From Ochrobactrum sp. BTU1 (GTDB lineage Bacteria > Pseudomonadota > Alphaproteobacteria > Rhizobiales > Rhizobiaceae), in the NCBI GenBank assembly GCA_018798825.1, contig CP076354.1, forward strand, positions 1,488,001-1,552,000: a stretch of DNA of 64,000 nt, in the 5' to 3' direction. Under the pieces are notes generated by a model. That model was not told where the DNA came from, did no database searches, and saw nothing but the letters and a program-made list of their open reading frames with translations. Shown here piece after piece: positions 44,794-62,207 of this stretch. Numbering within the stretch: the first letter of the stretch is position 1; each line of letters opens with the position of its first letter. The position numbers and the translations under genes were made by a program.

Positions 44794-46020
<1,227 letters not shown>

Positions 46021-46041
46021 AAGCTAAAAATACAAATGACG

Positions 46042-46066
46042 AAGGGGCCGAAAGGCCCCTTTTTCG
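46042..46066 (+). terminator. Terminator of aatA
   Basis: AAGGGGCC-gaaa-GGCCCCTT followed by TTT, 21 bases past the stop codon. Confidence 0.92.
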
Positions 46067-46108
46067 TATCTTCACCTCAAGAGAAAAACCAAGATCTGGC
46101 GAAAAGCC

Positions 46109-46222
46109 AAAAAAAAAGCCAGACAAATGTCTGGCTTTGAGTTTTGAAGGTGCCTTAAAGGCAAACCTCCAGAGGGGAACACTCAGCGCGCGCAAATGGG
46201 AGGAGGAAACGCAGCGCTGAGA
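46109..46222 (-). ncRNA. Small RNA with CCTCCTCCC loop (alpha-r14/NfeR1-like)
   Basis: On the minus strand the RNA starts near 46222, about 7 bases after a TATATA -10 box. A first hairpin with perfect 8-bp arms CTCAGCGC / GCGCTGAG (46214-46221 and 46182-46189) presents CCTCCTCCC in its loop (46198-46206), an anti-Shine-Dalgarno motif. A middle GCCTTTAAGGC hairpin follows, then a terminator GCCAGACA-aa-TGTCTGGC (46118-46135) with nine T. Length about 114 nt, no open frame. Rhizobial alpha-r14 sRNAs (NfeR1 in Sinorhizobium) have the same size and exposed CCUCCUCCC loops, and silence mRNAs by pairing to ribosome-binding sites. The 5' end is inferred. Confidence 0.8.
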
Positions 46223-46462
46223 TGACTTATATATGCCTTGTGCTCATTGTTTTTGCAATGCAACTTTAGCGCAATACAGCTATGCGTTTTTTGCATGGCT
46301 AGAAAATCAATAAAAAGTCAATATATTCATAGTGTTAGAGATTAACCACTTATCCGACTTTCTTAACTGGCTATTATAGAGCCGCCCAAACAGAAGGCAT
46401 AGCCGAACAATCACTGCCTCTAAAAATAGCAAATCACTTCCGTAAATCGCAAGCATCCGCCG

Positions 46463-46502
46463 CTGTCATGAAACTATCATGGCACTGAATCTGACTTGTC
46501 AC
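46463..46502 (+). promoter_or_regulatory. Tandem Pho boxes before the phosphodiesterase/ABC operon
   Basis: CTGTCAT-gaaa-CTATCAT is a near-consensus Pho box. Two more half-sites follow in exact 11-bp phase: CTGAATC (weak) and TTGTCAC. A CATAGA -10-like hexamer stands nine bases after the last half-site, as at PhoB-activated promoters. The leader to the phosphodiesterase start is about 80 bases. Confidence 0.78.
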
Positions 46503-46602
46503 AGAAGAGGCATAGAAGCCCTCGCAAGGCCGCAGCCATCCTTTTTGAATGCCGAAACGGCACATGCTGCAGCGCACCCCTTATCCAACAAGGAGCGCCA
46601 TC

Positions 46603-47454
46603 TTGCGTATCGTCCAGATTACCGACACCCATCTCAGCCCGACCAAGTCGCACTTCAACAGCAATTGGGCACCCCTTGTTGCGTGGATTGAAGAACAAAA
46701 GCCGGATCTCATCATTCACACCGGCGACCTGACGGTTGACGGTGCAGATATGGAAGCGGATCTCGCTTTCTGCCGCGAACGTATCGCCGAACTTACCGCC
46801 CCTGTGCTGAGCCTTCCCGGTAATCACGACATCGGCCACCTGCCCGGCAGCCATCAACCTGTCAACATACAGCGCCTGAAGCGTTGGCGCGATCATTTCG
46901 GTCCAGATTACTGGGCTAAAGATCTCGGCGACTGGCGCATCATTGGGCTTAACAGCCTGATTATCGGTGCCGACTCCGCAGAGGAAGAAGAACAGTTCCA
47001 ATGGCTTGAGGCAGAGCTGAATAACAGCGATGGCAAGCCTGTTGCTATTTTTGCGCATAAGCCGGTTTTCGTCGATCAGCCAGATGAAGGGGACACGGGC
47101 TACTGGGGTATTCGACCCGCTCCACGTCAGCGCCTCTACGATCTGTTTGCCGCCAATAATGTAAAGCTTCATGCAAGCGGCCATCTTCACCGCGCATGGG
47201 CTGGGGAAGCTTATGGTACAAGCTATATCTGGGCACCGGCAGCAGCATTCATAGTGGGTGCCATGGAACGTGACCTGCCCGGTGAGCGTATTCTGGGAGC
47301 AGCTATCCACGACCTCGGCGAAACAGTAAAAAGTGAAATCGTCCGTATTGAAGAGCTTACACCTTACGTCATTGATGATGTTGTGCATGAAGTCTATCCG
47401 CATCACACCGGCGATGGTGAGGCGGAAAAGCTTGCTGAGGAGGCTACTCAGTGA
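46603..47454 (+). CDS. Calcineurin-type phosphodiesterase of a Pho-regulated ABC operon
   Basis: 283 residues. Metallophosphoesterase motifs in order: QITDTHLS (Asp 8, His 10), HTGDLTVDG (Asp 42), LPGNHD (Asn 74, His 75), IFAHKPV, and ASGHLHRAW. This is the class III cyclic-nucleotide/GpdQ-like family, which cleaves phosphodiesters such as glycerophosphodiesters or cAMP with two metal ions. No signal peptide, so it works in the cytosol on an imported substrate. TTG 46603 is chosen: AAGGAG lies seven bases ahead and the protein then starts at the conserved RIVQITD; an in-frame ATG 18 codons up has no ribosome site. Its stop overlaps the GTG of the ATPase gene, so it is the first gene of a five-gene operon behind tandem Pho boxes. 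Confidence 0.85.
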   Translation: MRIVQITDTHLSPTKSHFNSNWAPLVAWIEEQKPDLIIHTGDLTVDGADMEADLAFCRERIAELTAPVLSLPGNHDIGHLPGSHQPVNIQRLKRWRDHFGPDYWAKDLGDWRIIGLNSLIIGADSAEEEEQFQWLEAELNNSDGKPVAIFAHKPVFVDQPDEGDTGYWGIRPAPRQRLYDLFAANNVKLHASGHLHRAWAGEAYGTSYIWAPAAAFIVGAMERDLPGERILGAAIHDLGETVKSEIVRIEELTPYVIDDVVHEVYPHHTGDGEAEKLAEEATQ

Positions 47455-48629
47455 GCACGCTTGTCCTTCGCGATATCAGCAAGTCTTACGGCAACAATCA
47501 GATCCTTGACGGTATTTCCATTGATGCCGCAGAAGGCGAGTTTATTGCACTCGTGGGTCCGTCAGGTTGTGGCAAGAGCACGTTGCTGCGCATTCTTGCA
47601 GGCCTTGATCACGCCGATGAAGGCAGCATTGCCATTGCCGGACGCGATATCACAGGCGCCCATCCTGCTGACCGCAACATGGCGATGGTCTTTCAATCCT
47701 ATGCACTTTATCCGCATTTAACGGCCGCGCAGAACATCGCGGTTCCTCTTGCCATGCGCGATATGACCACTCTGGAACGCTTTCCACTGGTCGGCGTACT
47801 CGTTCCGGGGCAACGCAAGAAGCGAGCAACCATCCAAAAGCAGGTCAAAGCGACAGCGACCAGCCTTAAAATCGATCATCTGCTTGATCGCAAGCCGGGC
47901 CAAATGTCGGGTGGCCAGCGCCAGCGTGTTGCGCTTGCCCGTGCTCTTGTCCGTCAGCCCGGCGCGTTTCTAATGGATGAGCCGCTGTCCAACCTCGACG
48001 CCAATCTGCGTGTTCACACCCGGGCGGAAATCGTGGAGCTTCATCGCCGCGCCGGTGTGCCGACAATCTATGTAACGCACGATCAGGCTGAAGCGCTGAG
48101 CATGGCCGACCGTGTGGCCGTCATGATGGGCGGTAAGTTACTGCAGATTGATACGCCAACTGCGATCTATAATGATCCAAAACATATTGAAGTCGCTCAG
48201 TTTATCGGCACACCGCGCATCAATATCCTTGACGCTCTGGTGAGCGACAATGGCATCGTCCATTTTGCTGGCCGCGCGATACTGCAAGGCATCGCTGCAC
48301 ATTCAGGCACGCAAATCCGCGTCGGCATCAGGCCGGAACATTTCCGCATCGTTCCACACGACAGAACCGGTATCACTGCCACGGTTTCGCGGATTGAGTT
48401 CCTGGGCTCGGAAGTGTTGATCTATGTAAAAGCTCCCGGCGCGTCACAAGATCTGACGGTCAAGCTTGATCCCGCGAACGCAAAACATATTGCAGCGGGT
48501 CTAGCCGTTGGCCTGCATTTTGATGCAGAAAACGCTTATCTTTTTGGTGGCGACGGTCTGCGTCTGCGTCAACCCACAGGAAATGCAATACAACTTGCCC
48601 CGCGGGAAAAGGCGCCAGCTCATGTCTGA
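47451..48629 (+). CDS. ABC transporter ATPase (UgpC/MalK type)
   Basis: 392 residues from a GTG that overlaps the preceding stop (GTGA). Walker A GPSGCGKST 36-44, Q-loop FQSYALYPH (81-89), signature MSGGQRQR 152-159, Walker B FLMDEPLSNLD 173-183, H-loop VTHDQAEAL, then a C-terminal TOBE-like regulatory domain (about 235-380). An extra segment of about 18 residues (108-125, including FPLVGVLVPGQRKK) lies between Q-loop and signature; standard MalK/UgpC have no such insertion. It powers import through the two permeases that follow. CDS end overlaps the first permease start by 8 bases. Confidence 0.9.
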   Translation: MSTLVLRDISKSYGNNQILDGISIDAAEGEFIALVGPSGCGKSTLLRILAGLDHADEGSIAIAGRDITGAHPADRNMAMVFQSYALYPHLTAAQNIAVPLAMRDMTTLERFPLVGVLVPGQRKKRATIQKQVKATATSLKIDHLLDRKPGQMSGGQRQRVALARALVRQPGAFLMDEPLSNLDANLRVHTRAEIVELHRRAGVPTIYVTHDQAEALSMADRVAVMMGGKLLQIDTPTAIYNDPKHIEVAQFIGTPRINILDALVSDNGIVHFAGRAILQGIAAHSGTQIRVGIRPEHFRIVPHDRTGITATVSRIEFLGSEVLIYVKAPGASQDLTVKLDPANAKHIAAGLAVGLHFDAENAYLFGGDGLRLRQPTGNAIQLAPREKAPAHV

Positions 48630-49554
48630 CGCCGCTCTTCCTCACACGGGTTTAACCAACGCTCGCACGGCTGCAGAAAAGGCACGCCGGCGTGAAGAAC
48701 GCCTTGCCTGGAAGCTTGCGGCACCGGCCATTCTTCTCACAGCACTTTTGATCCTGTTACCGACAGCAGCTGTGATCTTCTGGAGCCTCACCAATTTCGA
48801 GTTGGGCTATGATGGCTTTGAATTTATCGGCCTTGATAACTACCGCGAGTTATTCACCGACCGCACGTTTTTGATCTCACTCAAAAACACGGCAGTTTAC
48901 ACAGCCATCGTAGCTCCGGCTTCCGTTTTTCTGGGCCTTGGCGTGGCGCTTCTTATTGAAAGCGAAGTTCGCGGCAAATCATTTTTCCGCACGGTTTACT
49001 TCCTTCCTGTCGCTTCGCTTCTCGTCGCCATGGCAACCGTCTGGCAGTATCTACTGCATCCAACGCTTGGTCCGGTAAACGCAATGCTTGGGATGATCGG
49101 CATTACCGGTCCCAACTGGCTAGGCTCCAGCGATACCGTGCTCTTTAGCCTTGCACTCATTGGCGTCTGGCAGAGCGTCGGTTTCAACATGGTTCTGTTT
49201 CTTGCTGGCCTGACCGCGATACCACGCGAACTTTATTCGGCTGCGGAAGTTGATGGCGTGAAAAGCAGCTGGGAACGGTTTCGTCTGGTCACTTGGCCTC
49301 TGCTCGGCCCCACCACGCTGTTTGTAACGACAATCAGCATTATCAATGCAGTCAAAGTCTTTGAGACAGTCAAAACACTGACCGAAGGCGGTCCAAATAA
49401 AGCATCCGAAGTGCTGCTCTGGACCATTTATCAGGAAGGCTTTGTCTATCTGCGCGTGGGCTATGCCTCTGCGATGACCGTGATTTTCCTCGCTGTGCTG
49501 ATCGTTCTGATGATGCTGCAGTTCCGCGTGCTGGACCGTCGTACCCATTATTGA
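48622..49554 (+). CDS. ABC transporter permease (UgpA/MalF type)
   Basis: 310 residues, six membrane helices (about 32-55, 95-115, 127-147, 180-205, 225-248, 285-305). The cytoplasmic EAA loop reads SAAEVDGVKSSWERFRLVTWPLL, where the ATPase docks. ATG 48622 lies inside the end of the ATPase gene (8-base overlap); earlier in-frame codons in the long open frame are within that gene and not used. A carbohydrate- or glycerol-phosphate-type importer. Confidence 0.92.
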   Translation: MSDAALPHTGLTNARTAAEKARRREERLAWKLAAPAILLTALLILLPTAAVIFWSLTNFELGYDGFEFIGLDNYRELFTDRTFLISLKNTAVYTAIVAPASVFLGLGVALLIESEVRGKSFFRTVYFLPVASLLVAMATVWQYLLHPTLGPVNAMLGMIGITGPNWLGSSDTVLFSLALIGVWQSVGFNMVLFLAGLTAIPRELYSAAEVDGVKSSWERFRLVTWPLLGPTTLFVTTISIINAVKVFETVKTLTEGGPNKASEVLLWTIYQEGFVYLRVGYASAMTVIFLAVLIVLMMLQFRVLDRRTHY

Positions 49555-49564
49555 GGAGCCAGAA

Positions 49565-50386
49565 ATGACTTTTGCCCGTTCCTTCCGTCTCGGCTTGCTT
49601 TCATTGGGTGCGCTTATTTTTCTGGCACCCTATATCTTCATGCTATCGACGGCCGCCAAATCGCAACAGGATATCTTTTCCTCTTCACTTTCGCTCATTC
49701 CGCAAAACTGGGCTCTTTGGGATAACCTCACCAAAGCTTTGACGCGCGTTCCGATGGGACTTCTGCTGTTTAACGGTGTCGTCGTCTGTGGACTGGTTCT
49801 CGTCGTACAGGTGGTGATTGCCATACCGTGCGCTTATGCAATGGCAAAGCTGCAGTTTCGCGGTCAGCGCACGATGATGATGCTAGTCATGCTTGGCCTT
49901 CTTGTTCCGATCCATGCAACGGCCCTCCCGTTCTATGTCGGCTTCAATCAGCTTGGCGTTCTCAATAGCTACTTCGCACTGAGCGCGCCGTTCTTCATTT
50001 CGGTCTTCGGCATTTTCCTGTTTCTACAGTTTTTCCGTGCTCTTCCGGATGACCTCATCAGCGCTGCTCGCCTTGATGGAATGTCCGAAGCAGGCATCGT
50101 CATGCGCGTCATTGTTCCAAATGCGTGGCCTGCCATCACCGCTTTCTCGATCTTTTCGGTGGTAGCGCACTGGAACGATCTGTTTTGGCCGCTCATCGTC
50201 GTCAATGGCATGGAACGGGCCACACCACCGCTCGGCCTCCTCTATTTCCGCGCAGCAGAAGCTGGCGACGACTATGGCGCACTGATGGCGGCAACGCTCA
50301 TCATCACCCTGCCGCTTCTCCTCGCATTTCTCGCAGCCCAGCGCCGCTTCATCGAAGGCATTACTTTAACCGGCCTCAAAGGCTGA
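49565..50386 (+). CDS. ABC transporter permease (UgpE/MalG type)
   Basis: 273 residues with six helices (about 10-30, 68-95, 103-125, 135-160, 182-205, 238-258). EAA loop ISAARLDGMSEAGIVMRVIVPNAWP. GAGGAG lies seven bases ahead of ATG 49565; ten bases separate it from the first permease. Partner of the preceding permease in one importer. Confidence 0.92.
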   Translation: MTFARSFRLGLLSLGALIFLAPYIFMLSTAAKSQQDIFSSSLSLIPQNWALWDNLTKALTRVPMGLLLFNGVVVCGLVLVVQVVIAIPCAYAMAKLQFRGQRTMMMLVMLGLLVPIHATALPFYVGFNQLGVLNSYFALSAPFFISVFGIFLFLQFFRALPDDLISAARLDGMSEAGIVMRVIVPNAWPAITAFSIFSVVAHWNDLFWPLIVVNGMERATPPLGLLYFRAAEAGDDYGALMAATLIITLPLLLAFLAAQRRFIEGITLTGLKG

Positions 50387-50427
50387 AATCCTCCCCGCCC
50401 TCCCTTATCCTCCCAAGGAGTTAAACC

Positions 50428-51693
50428 ATGAAACGCCTTTCCAGCGCTCTTGCCGCTCTGGCTGTTGCGACCGGCCTCGTCTCTCCGGCTTTCGCAGAAA
50501 CCACGCTTAACGTGCATTATCCGATGCCCGGCTTCTTTAAAGATGTCATGGCCGACATCTCGAAGAAGTTCATGGAAGAAAATCCAGATATCAAGATCAA
50601 CTTCGTAAGCCCCTCAGTGACTTATGAAGAAGGCATCCAGACAATCATGCGTCAGGCTGGCACCTCGGAACTGCCAGACATCACCTTCACTGGCTTGAAC
50701 CGTCTGCGCGTACTGGCTGAACGCAATATCGGCGTCGATATGAAGCCGCTCGTTGATAAGGAAGCAGACCTTGAAGCTCAGGGCTTCACCGATCACCTGC
50801 TAAGCCTTGCTCGCGTTGGTGATCGTCAGGTCGGCCTTGCTTTCGCAACGTCAAACCCGATCATGTATTACAATGCCGATCTGGTTAAGGCTGCGGGCGG
50901 CAACCCAGATACACCGCCAACCACTTGGGACGAGGTGATCGAGCTCGGCGGCAAAATCAAGGCACTCGGCAACGGCAATGAAGGCATCGACTTCCGCTGG
51001 CAGGGTGACGACTGGATGTTCTCAGCGCTGCTTTTCGGCGCGGGCGGCACCATGCTCACTGAAGACGAAAAGAAGGTTGCCTTTAATGGACCGGAAGGCC
51101 TTGAAGCCTTCAAACTCGTTGATCGCTTGGTGAAAGAAGGCGGCATGCCAGTTCTGACCAAGGCTGCGGGTGAACAGGCTTTTGCTGCTGGTAAGGTAGG
51201 CTTCGCATTCCAGACCACTGGCGCACTGCGCAACACGATCAAGAATGTTGGCGATAAGTTCGATATGCGCACCGCCAAGATTCCACTGCTTAACCCTGAA
51301 AAGGGTCGTTTGCCAACGGGTGGTAATGCAGTTGTCATCCTGACCGAAGACCAGGCAAAGCTTGATGCAGCCTGGAAATTTGCCAAATTTGCTGCAGGCC
51401 CATACGGCGCATCGGTCGTTGTACCAGGTACCGGCTATGTGCCGAACAATGAACTGGCTGCGAAGTCGGATGAATATCTCGGCAAATTCTATGAAGAAAA
51501 TCCGCTCTTCAAAGCTGGTCTGAGCCAGATGTCGATCATGATCCCTTGGTATGCATTCCCAGGCTCGAACGGCGTCAAGGTAACACAGACCATTGTCGAC
51601 AACCTCTCGCGTGTTGTTGAGCAGTCCGCAACGCCTGAAGATGCTCTTGCCGATGCATCGAAAGAAGTTCAGCGTCTGCTGCCACGCAAATAG
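50428..51693 (+). CDS. ABC transporter periplasmic substrate-binding protein, family 1
   Basis: 421 residues. Signal peptide 1-23 (MKRLSSALAALAVATGLVSPAFA). The mature part starts TTLNVHYPMPGFFKDVM and shows the family 1 layout: PDITFTGLNRLRVLAERN, then NPIMYYNADLVKAAGG (hinge strand), WDEVIELGGKIKAL, and WKFAKFAAGPYGASVVVPGTGYVP near the C-terminus. UgpB, the glycerol-3-phosphate binder, belongs to this family, as do sugar binders. AAGGAG precedes ATG 50428. Last gene of the operon. Ligand cannot be read, but the Pho boxes and phosphodiesterase favour a phosphodiester such as a glycerophosphodiester. Confidence 0.88.
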   Translation: MKRLSSALAALAVATGLVSPAFAETTLNVHYPMPGFFKDVMADISKKFMEENPDIKINFVSPSVTYEEGIQTIMRQAGTSELPDITFTGLNRLRVLAERNIGVDMKPLVDKEADLEAQGFTDHLLSLARVGDRQVGLAFATSNPIMYYNADLVKAAGGNPDTPPTTWDEVIELGGKIKALGNGNEGIDFRWQGDDWMFSALLFGAGGTMLTEDEKKVAFNGPEGLEAFKLVDRLVKEGGMPVLTKAAGEQAFAAGKVGFAFQTTGALRNTIKNVGDKFDMRTAKIPLLNPEKGRLPTGGNAVVILTEDQAKLDAAWKFAKFAAGPYGASVVVPGTGYVPNNELAAKSDEYLGKFYEENPLFKAGLSQMSIMIPWYAFPGSNGVKVTQTIVDNLSRVVEQSATPEDALADASKEVQRLLPRK

Positions 51694-51757: not shown

Positions 51758-52663
51758 TCAGAAGGTCCAGTTTCTTGCCTTCGAGAACAGGAAATCACGG
51801 AAAGCATGAAGCTTGGCAGAATTCTTCAGCGCTTCCGGATAACAGAAGAACGTGTCGAAGGATGGGATTTCCTCAAGCTCAGGCAAAAGCTGAACGAGAC
51901 CGGATTCCTTGTCCGCCATATAGTCAGGCAACACCGCAATTCCGACACCACGCTGGACCGCACGACGAATGGAAAGCAGATTATTCACCTGCAAAACCGG
52001 AATGCGTGAGCTGCCATCGGACCGACCAGCGATCTCGAGCCAGTTCAATCCTGTCAGATAGCTTGGAGCAGGCTCACCGAATGTCACAACCCGATGCTGG
52101 TCGATCTCGTCTATGGAATTCAGCTTCCCATATTTCGAGACATAACCCGCAGAGGCATAAACATGCATATGCACGGTGAACAGGCGGCGCTGGATGAGGT
52201 CAGGCTGCTGGGGCTGGCGCAAGCGGATTGCGCAATCCGCATGACGCATGGTCAGGTCCAGTTCCTCATTATCGAGGATCAGCTGCAGCTGAATATCCGG
52301 GTAAAGCTCGACGAACTCCTGAATGCGCTCGATCAGCCAGCCCGAGCCAAGACCAACCGTCGTGGTCACACGCAGGCGACCCGTCGGCTTTTCCTTGCTT
52401 TCCGCAAGTTTGGAGCGGACATTTTCGAGCTTCATCAGCACGTCATGCGCCGTGCGATAGAGCGTTTCGCCTTGTTCCGTCAGAATAAGCCCGCGCGCAT
52501 GGCGATGAAACAGCGGAACGCCGACATCCTGCTCAAGCGCGCTGACCTGACGCGAAATAGCCGATTGCGACAGATGCAATGTCTGCGCGGCATGGGTAAA
52601 GGACCCCGCTTCCGCGGCAGCATGGAATATGCGCAGTTTATCCCAGTCGAGCGGTGCGACCAC
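51758..52663 (-). CDS. vtlR: LysR-family regulator VtlR/LsrB
   Basis: 301 residues. N-terminal winged HTH: LRIFHAAAEAGSFTHAAQTL and HLSQSAISRQVSALEQDVG; linker and effector domain follow (GRLRVTTTVGLGSGWL, LDLTMRHADCAIRL, GVGIAVLPDYM). Its place directly downstream of trxB is conserved and marks the LsrB regulator of Sinorhizobium and VtlR of Brucella/Agrobacterium, which control LPS, oxidative-stress genes and small RNAs or small proteins needed in the host. Two cysteines (144 in HADCAIRL and one near 277 in FFCYPEAL) could be redox sensors. ATG 52663. trxB ends 15 bases upstream on the same strand, so the two form an operon. Confidence 0.85.
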   Translation of the reverse strand: MVAPLDWDKLRIFHAAAEAGSFTHAAQTLHLSQSAISRQVSALEQDVGVPLFHRHARGLILTEQGETLYRTAHDVLMKLENVRSKLAESKEKPTGRLRVTTTVGLGSGWLIERIQEFVELYPDIQLQLILDNEELDLTMRHADCAIRLRQPQQPDLIQRRLFTVHMHVYASAGYVSKYGKLNSIDEIDQHRVVTFGEPAPSYLTGLNWLEIAGRSDGSSRIPVLQVNNLLSIRRAVQRGVGIAVLPDYMADKESGLVQLLPELEEIPSFDTFFCYPEALKNSAKLHAFRDFLFSKARNWTF

Positions 52664-52678
52664 CTTCTCCCCCTCTCG

Positions 52679-53653
52679 TTACTCCGCAGCTTCGTGCAGC
52701 GGTTCCTGTGCAGCCAACCAGCGCTCTGCTTCCAGAGCAGCCATGCAACCCATACCTGCTGCCGTTACAGCCTGCCGGTAAATATCGTCCGTAACGTCAC
52801 CGGCGGCAAAAATGCCTGGAACGTCAGTGGCCGTTGAATCAGGCGCAGTCCAAAGATAGCCGTTTGGCTTCTGCTTGAGTTTGCCCTCGAACAAAGAAAC
52901 AGCAGGTGCGTGGCCAATGGCGATGAAAACGCCATGTACGTCGTGAACAGCCGTTTCGCCCGTGACAACATTCTTGAGGCGCACGCCGGTCACTGTCGCG
53001 CCCATCGGCGGCTTGGCCTCGGTGCCGACGATTTCGTCGATGACGCTGTTCCAGACGACCTTAACATTGTCGCGGTTCAGCAGGCGATCCTGCATGATCT
53101 TTTCTGCACGGAAGCCTTCGCGGCGATGAACAACGGTTACGCTCTTCGCAATATGCGAAAGGTAAAGTGCTTCCTCGACAGCGGTATTACCGCCACCGAC
53201 AACCACAACTTCCTTGCCGCGATAGAAGAAACCGTCACAGGTCGCACAAGCTGAAACGCCGCCACCCATGAAGGTCTGTTCGCTCTCAAGCCCCAGCCAT
53301 TTTGCCTGCGCACCGGTCGCAATGATCAGCGCATCACAGGTGTAAACCGTGCCGGAATCGCCAATCAGGCGGAATGGCCGCGATTTCGTATCGACCTCTG
53401 TGATGATGTCATAAAGAATTTCAGCGCCGACATTCTGAGCCTGCGTTGCCATCTGATCCATCATCCATGGACCCTGAACAGGTTCGGCATAGCCCGGATA
53501 GTTTTCCACATCGGTGGTGATCATCAGCTGACCACCCTGCTGCAAACCGGTAATGATGATCGGCTTGAGCATGGCGCGCGCTGCATAAATGGCTGCTGTA
53601 TATCCTGCCGGACCTGAGCCGATGACAATGACGGGCGCGTGACGCTGTGACAT
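52679..53653 (-). CDS. trxB: Thioredoxin reductase
   Basis: 324 residues. FAD site IGSGPAGYTAAIYAARA (11-27), redox pair CATC (Cys 136, Cys 139), NADPH site VVVGGGNTAVEEALYLS, and the C-terminal FAD motif VPGIFAAGDVTDDIYRQAVTAAGMGC. It reduces thioredoxin with NADPH in the cytosol. ATG 53653, with AGAACTACCC only weakly ribosome-like ahead. It shares a transcript with vtlR, linking redox balance with that regulator. Confidence 0.97.
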   Translation of the reverse strand: MSQRHAPVIVIGSGPAGYTAAIYAARAMLKPIIITGLQQGGQLMITTDVENYPGYAEPVQGPWMMDQMATQAQNVGAEILYDIITEVDTKSRPFRLIGDSGTVYTCDALIIATGAQAKWLGLESEQTFMGGGVSACATCDGFFYRGKEVVVVGGGNTAVEEALYLSHIAKSVTVVHRREGFRAEKIMQDRLLNRDNVKVVWNSVIDEIVGTEAKPPMGATVTGVRLKNVVTGETAVHDVHGVFIAIGHAPAVSLFEGKLKQKPNGYLWTAPDSTATDVPGIFAAGDVTDDIYRQAVTAAGMGCMAALEAERWLAAQEPLHEAAE

Positions 53654-61535: not shown

Positions 61536-61922
61536 TTACTCAGCCGGAACTGGTGTCGGCTGGCCACTCTTGTCGAGCGCCACCATGACGAATTCGCCAT
61601 GTGTAACCAGATCCATTTCGTCAGCTAGATAACGCTGAGCCCACGCTTCAACGCGCAGCGTAATCGAGGTGCGACCAACGCGCGTAATCTCGGTATAAAC
61701 ACAAAGAACGTCGCCAATCTTGACCGGCTTGGCGAAAGACATTTCACGCACCGCAGCTGTTACAACGCGGCCCTTGGCACGTTCTGCAGCACGAATGCCG
61801 CTGGCCGTATCCATCTGCGCCATAACCCAGCCGCCGAAAATATCACCAGCCGAATTGGTATCTTTGGGCATGGCCTGCGTGCGTACAGTCAACATGCCCT
61901 TTGGCGCATTAATATCGTTCAT
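61536..61922 (-). CDS. yciA: Acyl-CoA thioesterase, YciA type
   Basis: 128 residues, single hot-dog domain. RTQAMPKDTNSAGDIFGGWVMAQMD contains the catalytic Asn/Asp region of YciA; VTAAVREMSFAKPVKIGD and VYTEITRVGRTSITLRVEAW complete it. It hydrolyses a broad range of acyl-CoAs in the cytosol. ATG 61922 with a weak AAGGA upstream. Between here and the SH3 gene lie 285 bases with no gene I can support. Confidence 0.93.
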   Translation of the reverse strand: MNDINAPKGMLTVRTQAMPKDTNSAGDIFGGWVMAQMDTASGIRAAERAKGRVVTAAVREMSFAKPVKIGDVLCVYTEITRVGRTSITLRVEAWAQRYLADEMDLVTHGEFVMVALDKSGQPTPVPAE

Positions 61923-62207
61923 CAGTAGGTCCTTCGATCACCAGAGGCGCATCCCAAACCGCATGAAGCGGTTTCGTAAAAGATGCACGTCAAAACAGAA
62001 AACTAGAGTCATCGCTGAGTATGCTGCAAGCCTCTCCAAAGGGAAAGTGCGACATGCGCACCGCAGCCATGCAAATCAGGCACGAAACACCTATAAAAGT
62101 TAAACTCTTAATTATTAATCATACCGTAAATATTCATATTGGCTTTAAAGTAATAATAACAATTATCTGCTATGTATAAATTCATGTAATACATATCAGG
62201 GGCTAAA

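What the first reader, a model, noticed from the sequence alone, without database searches (positions are those of the whole stretch)
46109..46222. Unannotated small RNA with an exposed CCUCCUCCC anti-Shine-Dalgarno loop
The minus strand shows a complete sRNA layout: TATATA -10 box, an 8-bp hairpin displaying CCTCCTCCC, a second hairpin, and a terminator with nine T, in 114 bases without a reading frame. The shape agrees with the alpha-r14/NfeR1 family, which silences many mRNAs through ribosome-site pairing in rhizobia. Several genes in this window have GGAGG-type ribosome sites and would be candidate targets.
Basis: partly seen in the sequence, partly recalled or inferred. Interest (0 to 1): 0.75.

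Follow-up and report, generated by a model that had tools for sequence, protein, structure and literature searches.

The report
AbcR-family small RNA beside VtlR

Summary
Window 46110-46222(-) matches Rfam ar15/AbcR over its full length at 76.9 bits (cut-off 40); ar14/NfeR1, the family proposed, scores 24.7 (cut-off 58.8). ar14 carries three anti-Shine-Dalgarno (aSD) loops; this RNA has one, plus the AbcR motif UUCCCCUC. Six ar14 genes lie elsewhere in this genome. The organism is probably Brucella (Ochrobactrum) pseudogrignonensis or close to it. A VtlR/LsrB box sits at -63, and the VtlR gene is 5.5 kb away in the window; regulator box and linkage fit Brucella AbcR2. Most likely mechanism: a VtlR-activated, Hfq-dependent RNA that blocks ribosome sites of transporter mRNAs. 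That is known biology: a new member of a known kind. New and untested at the bench: in relatives, vtlR ribosome sites often complement the second motif (at least 6 nt in 40 of 62 new leaders, against 5 of 64 trxB leaders), less often where AbcR was not detected (5 of 25, against 54 of 87). This suggests that AbcR represses its own activator; but the window's own site is weak, and so is that of S. meliloti.

The parts
46110..46222 (-). AbcR-family (ar15) sRNA gene; by regulator box and vtlR linkage the counterpart of Brucella AbcR2
   Evidence: Rfam RF02345 full-length 1-112, 76.9 bits, cut-off 40; invariant core in 18 sequences
46271..46285 (-). VtlR/LsrB box GCATAGCTGTATTGC, starting at -63 from the modelled 5' end
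   Evidence: published consensus GCAT-N3-TG-N3-T between -61 and -49 in S. meliloti (PMC8844928 section 5)
46253..46258 (-). -35 element TTGCAA
46230..46235 (-). -10 element CATATA, 17 nt after the -35 element
   Evidence: published spacing N17 (PMC8844928 section 5)
46182..46221 (-). stem-loop 1
   Evidence: fold
46198..46207 (-). aSD1 seed UCCUCCUCCC in the loop of stem-loop 1 (with the next base it contains M1, CUCCCA)
   Evidence: mean unpaired probability of CUCCC 1.0
46172..46180 (-). aSD2 seed GUUCCCCUC (contains M2, GUUCCC), single-stranded between stem-loops 1 and 2
   Evidence: mean unpaired probability 0.99; invariant in 18 sequences
46145..46171 (-). stem-loop 2
   Evidence: fold
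46139..46144 (-). single-stranded A-rich linker before the terminator; PMC3712013 names such a stretch as an Hfq signature (passage)
   Evidence: fold; Hfq binding is inference
46109..46138 (-). intrinsic terminator hairpin and nine-T run (T at 46109-46117)
51758..52663 (-). vtlR/lsrB orthologue (LysR-type regulator), probable activator
   Evidence: 70% identity to a rhizobial LysR protein encoded next to abcR in L010, E 1e-145; the next LysR match in this genome has 29%; Pfam LysR domains
52670..52676 (-). AGAGGGG in the vtlR leader, complementary to CCCCUCU of the sRNA
52679..53653 (-). trxB, upstream of vtlR on the same strand
   Evidence: NCBIfam TIGR01292 399.8 bits, cut-off 343.45
46549..51693 (+). 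phosphoesterase gene and ABC-importer genes (ATPase, two permeases, binding protein) lying between abcR and vtlR
44818..46020 (+). aminotransferase gene, tail to tail with the sRNA

Best explanation
An AbcR-family (ar15) small RNA, by regulator box and linkage the counterpart of Brucella AbcR2 (and of Sinorhizobium/Agrobacterium AbcR1). VtlR/LsrB, encoded 5.5 kb away, binds the box at -63 and activates a housekeeping-type promoter. The ~113-nt transcript, with Hfq, uses two independent seeds, aSD1 (UCCUCCUCCC, loop of hairpin 1) and aSD2 (GUUCCCCUC, between hairpins 1 and 2), to pair with ribosome-binding sites, chiefly of ABC-transporter and metabolic mRNAs, and lowers their translation and stability. 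Shown here: sequence, fold, conservation, family match, promoter elements, presence of VtlR and Hfq genes. Inferred from characterised orthologues: transcription, VtlR binding, Hfq dependence, targets.
For: Rfam ar15 76.9 bits over the full model. Aminotransferase > < sRNA < > phosphoesterase in 17 of 17 loci L034-L050 (15 named Brucella or Ochrobactrum, 2 named only Rhizobiales bacterium). The other 3 loci (Falsochrobactrum, Paenochrobactrum) and 15 further relatives' loci have no ar15 match beside the phosphoesterase. Strict VtlR/LsrB consensus at -61 to -63 in 14 of the 17; the 3 misses (L040, L045, L049) differ at one base. VtlR orthologue and one Hfq gene in the genome. TTCCCCTC in 56 of 57 ar15 copies examined and CCTCCC in 52 of 57 (48 distinct sequences, the window's own among them). 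In B. abortus VtlR activates abcR2 on chromosome I (PMC7486931 passages), and in B. melitensis abcR2 lies just downstream of vtlR (PMC12595884 passage). Mechanism of orthologues: PMC8844928 sections 5 and 8, PMC5461406 section 8, PMC7486931 section 10 and passages, PMC3712013 passages.
Against: No expression data for this organism. The strict VtlR consensus, with 7 fixed positions, occurs 21 times in the window, so the box alone is weak; the form GCATAGCTG-N3-TGC occurs once. RNAalifold on the mixed 43-sequence alignment did not recover hairpin 1, probably because the aligner misplaced it, so covariation of hairpin 1 is untested. No target was shown: pairing to ribosome sites in the window is unspecific. 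The published flanking-gene orientation (-> <- ->) is the same for B. abortus AbcR1 and AbcR2 (PMC9751625 table passage), so it does not tell the two apart. I did not align the B. abortus sequence.
Confidence: 0.95

Rival explanations
1. A member of the ar14/NfeR1 family: an Hfq-independent sRNA with redundant aSD loops.
For: Shared CCUCCUCCC loop; ar14 has the next-best E-value after ar15 in the 801-base search, 0.019.
Against: 24.7 of 58.8 bits; one aSD loop instead of three; has the aSD2 motif that 0 of the 4 ar14 genes read carry; six ar14 genes over the cut-off are elsewhere in the genome and none in the window.
Confidence: 0.02
2. Not an sRNA gene but a strong terminator or 3' element belonging to a neighbouring gene.
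For: A terminator is present and the aminotransferase gene ends nearby on the other strand.
Against: The next gene upstream is divergent, so no same-strand gene is expected to end here; promoter elements and both seeds are conserved far above the flanks.
Confidence: 0.02
3. AbcR plus a negative feedback arm: the sRNA also pairs by aSD2 with the vtlR ribosome site and lowers its own activator (an addition to the best explanation, not a substitute).
For: First look: at least 6 nt of exact aSD2 complement in 13 of 26 vtlR leaders (at least 7 in 7 of 26), against 7 of 116 (0 of 116) annotated control leaders; shuffled vtlR leaders mean 3.65, max 9 of 26 in 500. Repeat on 64 loci of genomes not used there: 37 of 59 (25 of 59), shuffled mean 8.53, max 18 (mean 2.36, max 8) in 1000, trxB leaders 4 of 64 (0 of 64). 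Because some trxB starts were internal GTG codons, I redid it with the best of all candidate starts: vtlR 40 of 62 (27 of 62), trxB 5 of 64 (1 of 64). aSD1 complement is much rarer in vtlR leaders: 2 of 26, 12 of 62. With ar15 detected 54 of 87 leaders reach 6 nt, without 5 of 25, Fisher p 2e-4; for 7 nt 34 of 87 and 4 of 25, p 0.03.
Against: The first look was post hoc. The window's own leader has AGAGGGG only, and 14% of 500 shuffles pair as well; of four relatives' leaders tried with it, three pair better than all but 0.2-4% of shuffles and one (L166) is no better than chance, 82%. The S. meliloti leader has 5 nt. p values ignore kinship. In 2 genomes whose aSD2 differs (G012, G115) the leader shows no matching change. 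Of 20 LysR paralogue leaders of this genome 2 reach 6 nt, one of them 7. 0 of 5 annotated ABC-transporter leaders in the control set reach 6 nt to aSD2, so the measure has no working positive control. The passages of PMC8844928 that I saw do not name lsrB as a target.
Confidence: 0.35

Closest known systems
AbcR2 of Brucella abortus / B. melitensis (ar15, RF02345)
   Same: VtlR box and vtlR linkage, motifs M1 and M2; in print VtlR-activated and on chromosome I
   Different: Different species; here phosphoesterase and ABC-importer genes lie between vtlR and abcR, whereas B. melitensis is reported with two small hypothetical genes there. I did not align the Brucella abortus or melitensis sequence
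AbcR1 of Sinorhizobium meliloti and Agrobacterium tumefaciens
   Same: LsrB/VtlR-type promoter, two aSD seeds, three stem-loops
   Different: There abcR1 and abcR2 are in tandem directly downstream of lsrB/vtlR (PMC7486931); here the three copies sit on three contigs
ar14 / NfeR1 (RF02344)
   Same: CCUCCUCCC anti-Shine-Dalgarno loop; LsrB activation is published for NfeR1
   Different: Three aSD hairpins, no UUCCCCUC motif in the 4 genes read here, Hfq-independent in print (PMC10746234)

Membership tests
ar15 / AbcR (RF02345) | Covariance model score above the curated cut-off over the full model | tested here: met
   76.9 of 40 bits, positions 1-112 of 112
ar15 / AbcR (RF02345) | Two seeds: CUCCUCCC in loop 1 and UUCCCCUC between hairpins 1 and 2 | tested here: met
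ar15 / AbcR (RF02345) | Three stem-loops, the last an intrinsic terminator | tested here: met
ar15 / AbcR (RF02345) | Multiple copies per genome in Rhizobiaceae and Brucellaceae (PMC3712013) | tested here: met
   3 copies in this genome; 2 or 3 in each of 17 relatives
ar15 / AbcR (RF02345) | VtlR/LsrB-dependent promoter of one copy | tested here: inconclusive
   Box and VtlR gene present; dependence needs an experiment
ar15 / AbcR (RF02345) | Hfq binding and repression of ABC-transporter mRNAs | not testable with these tools
   Hfq gene present; pairing scan unspecific
ar14 / NfeR1 (RF02344) | Covariance model score above the curated cut-off | tested here: not met
   24.7 of 58.8 bits
ar14 / NfeR1 (RF02344) | Three hairpins each with the aSD motif | tested here: not met
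   One TCCTCCC here; three in each of the 4 ar14 genes read, of 6 found in this genome

The most novel reading that the evidence does not exclude
AbcR closes a negative feedback loop on its own activator: where AbcR occurs, the vtlR/lsrB ribosome-binding site has often been kept as a GAGGGGAA-type sequence complementary to the aSD2 seed, so that AbcR limits VtlR/LsrB synthesis and the redox-linked regulator and the nutrient-uptake sRNA form a self-limiting circuit.
Probability: 0.4. Interest if true: 0.5.

Novelty: new member of a known kind. Interest (0 to 1): 0.33.

Why it matters
As an sRNA it is ordinary: it places a published regulator in a further genome, under the right name and with its likely activator. 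The possible feedback of AbcR on vtlR would matter more, because VtlR/LsrB is a host-interaction regulator in several bacteria and the papers seen here describe its control as transcriptional and redox-based; the prediction is directly testable with published Sinorhizobium reporter strains.

Tried and rejected
ar14 membership: rejected. Targets among window genes: 40 of 59 mechanically called starts pair at -12 kcal/mol or better, so the scan separates little. Eight of the 59 beat all but 1% or less of their 200 shuffles; among them are the neighbouring ABC ATPase (47451, -16.5) and one permease (49565, -13.0), both with strong Shine-Dalgarno sites; the binding-protein gene (50428) pairs poorly, -9.3. 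I claim none of these as a target. Plasmid search with 46000-46560 found nothing in 72,556 records. RNAalifold on the mixed alignment failed on hairpin 1; single-sequence folds were used instead. A second VtlR-like box at 62072, in front of a thioesterase-like ORF, was looked at and left. Rows dropped: 5 of 64 loci gave no vtlR start (L206, L211, L230, L231, L235), 2 of 64, 3 of 40 loci gave none (L252, L254, L268). In the with/without-AbcR count supplied 26 leaders (2 of them from named records, L171 and L172, where a tandem AbcR-like pair was confirmed), supplied 50 (9 of its 59 come from genomes without a detected ar15), supplied 11 with and 25 without (the second vtlR copy of G052 was left out). 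Some 'without' genomes may hold an undetected AbcR: one search used stricter filters, and G052 shows an AbcR-like stretch. The trxB control took internal GTG codons as starts in part of the loci; one search mends this.

Full report
What is there. The minus strand at 46222-46109 holds three hairpins and a nine-T terminator. The fold is far more stable than shuffles (z -7.29, 0 of 200 as good). Rfam's ar15 model (AbcR) matches the full 1-112 at 76.9 bits, cut-off 40.

Where it is. The window is G000:C1:1488001-1552000 of a 5.88-Mb genome in 4 contigs. The neighbouring phosphoesterase is 99% identical to that of Brucella pseudogrignonensis CCUG 30717 (L036), an Ochrobactrum-type species; I did not establish the exact species. 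The genome has three ar15 copies, on contigs C1, C2 and C3, and six ar14 copies. In 121 genomes of the same family, 91 have an ar15 match at E <= 0.001 and 80 one over the cut-off.

Conservation. In 17 of 17 loci L034-L050 (15 named Brucella or Ochrobactrum, 2 only Rhizobiales bacterium) the sRNA lies between the aminotransferase and the phosphoesterase genes. The 3 other loci have no ar15 match, nor do 15 further relatives' loci. In the alignment of the window with the 17, 87% of sRNA columns are invariant, and all columns of both seed stretches and of the terminator hairpin; the VtlR box has 67%, the core promoter 58%, the flanks 8-24%.

Promoter. GCATAGCTGTATTGC starts at -63 from the modelled 5' end. 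The published LsrB/VtlR consensus is GCAT-N3-TG-N3-T between -61 and -49 in S. meliloti (PMC8844928 section 5). It is strict in 14 of the 17 loci and one base off in the other three. TTGCAA-N17-CATATA follows. The VtlR orthologue is in the window at 51758-52663, behind trxB. In the three genomes of this genus in the sample (G000, G016, G119) vtlR is 5.5-5.7 kb from abcR; in G050, G063, G078 and G096, the next nearest by VtlR identity (82-89%), it is 0.17-0.37 kb away (coordinates). The phosphoesterase and importer genes fill the gap in the window, G016 and G119; in B. gallinifaecis (L050) only the phosphoesterase gene lies there, with vtlR directly behind it.

How it works, by inference from orthologues. 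PMC8844928 section 8 shows two independent aSD motifs acting on ribosome sites in S. meliloti; PMC5461406 section 8 names M1 CUCCCA and M2 GUUCCC in B. abortus. Both are present and unpaired here. Hfq is encoded. I showed no target; the pairing scan of window genes is unspecific.

The other copies. The C2 copy has TTGAA-N17-CCATAT instead of a VtlR box, as do the matching copies in L117, L126 and L131 and, with one mismatch, L119. This resembles the RpoH1-type abcR2 promoter of S. meliloti. A 2022 review states that the regulator of Brucella abcR1 is unknown (PMC9751625 passage). The C3 copy resembles rhizobial copies: its region has matches in 296 of 72,556 plasmid records, 40 of which I saw listed. 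A third copy occurs in 3 of 17 relatives (G123, G127, G135). Plasmid-borne ar15 genes are already noted in PMC3712013 (legend passage).

A possible new arm. While listing pairings I saw that the vtlR leader carries AGAGGGG, complementary to aSD2. First look: 13 of 26 vtlR leaders have at least 6 nt of exact complement and 7 of 26 at least 7, against 7 of 116 and 0 of 116 annotated control leaders. I repeated it on 64 loci of genomes not used: 37 of 59 usable leaders (at least 6) and 25 of 59 (at least 7); shuffled vtlR leaders gave mean 8.53, max 18, and mean 2.36, max 8. The trxB leaders gave 4 of 64 and 0 of 64 there, partly with wrong starts; with the best of all candidate starts for both genes the counts are 40 of 62 and 27 of 62 for vtlR, 5 of 64 and 1 of 64 for trxB. 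Complement to aSD1 is rarer: 10 of 59, 12 of 62. Where ar15 was not detected, 5 of 25 leaders reach 6 nt, against 54 of 87 where it was (Fisher p 2e-4; kinship ignored, though the 121 sampled genomes come from 109 genera).

Against that arm. In the window's own leader the pairing is matched by 14% of shuffles. The S. meliloti leader has only 5 nt. In two genomes with a changed aSD2 the leader did not follow. 2 of 20 LysR paralogue leaders of this genome reach 6 nt, one of them 7. 0 of 5 annotated ABC-transporter leaders in the control set reach 6 nt, so the measure has no working positive control. For print, I searched the held library with the terms and saw passages of PMC7486931, PMC8844928, PMC11975290 and PMC12595884; none states AbcR control of vtlR/lsrB. 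PMC11975290 reports autoregulation of the trxB-lsrB operon by LsrB itself. Supplements and the 2014 AbcR1 target paper (PMC4152367, not held) were not seen.

Verdict. A real sRNA gene, rightly seen, wrongly filed; a member of a known family. The feedback idea is the part worth a bench test.

Noticed in passing
L003:1501-1609 (G000:C2:956270-956378, +): Second AbcR copy has an RpoH-like promoter (TTGAA-N17-CCATAT) and no VtlR box; the review PMC9751625 calls the regulator of Brucella abcR1 unknown.
   Followed up: partly
L001:1501-1601 (G000:C3:622039-622139, -): Third, rhizobial-type AbcR copy with a degenerate VtlR box on a 1.0-Mb contig; third copies in 3 of 17 relatives, and its region matches 296 of 72,556 plasmid records.
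   Followed up: partly
46549-51693: Phosphoesterase and ABC-importer genes lie between abcR and vtlR here, in G016 and in G119; only the phosphoesterase gene in L050; the pair is adjacent in G050, G063, G078 and G096.
   Followed up: partly
L115:12814-12932 (G000:C2:961814-961932): An ar14 gene lies about 5.4 kb from the second AbcR copy, with a glycine riboswitch between them.
   Followed up: no
62058-62072 (-): Second VtlR-like box GCATGGCTGCGGTGC, 150 nt upstream of a thioesterase-like ORF (61536-61922).
   Followed up: partly
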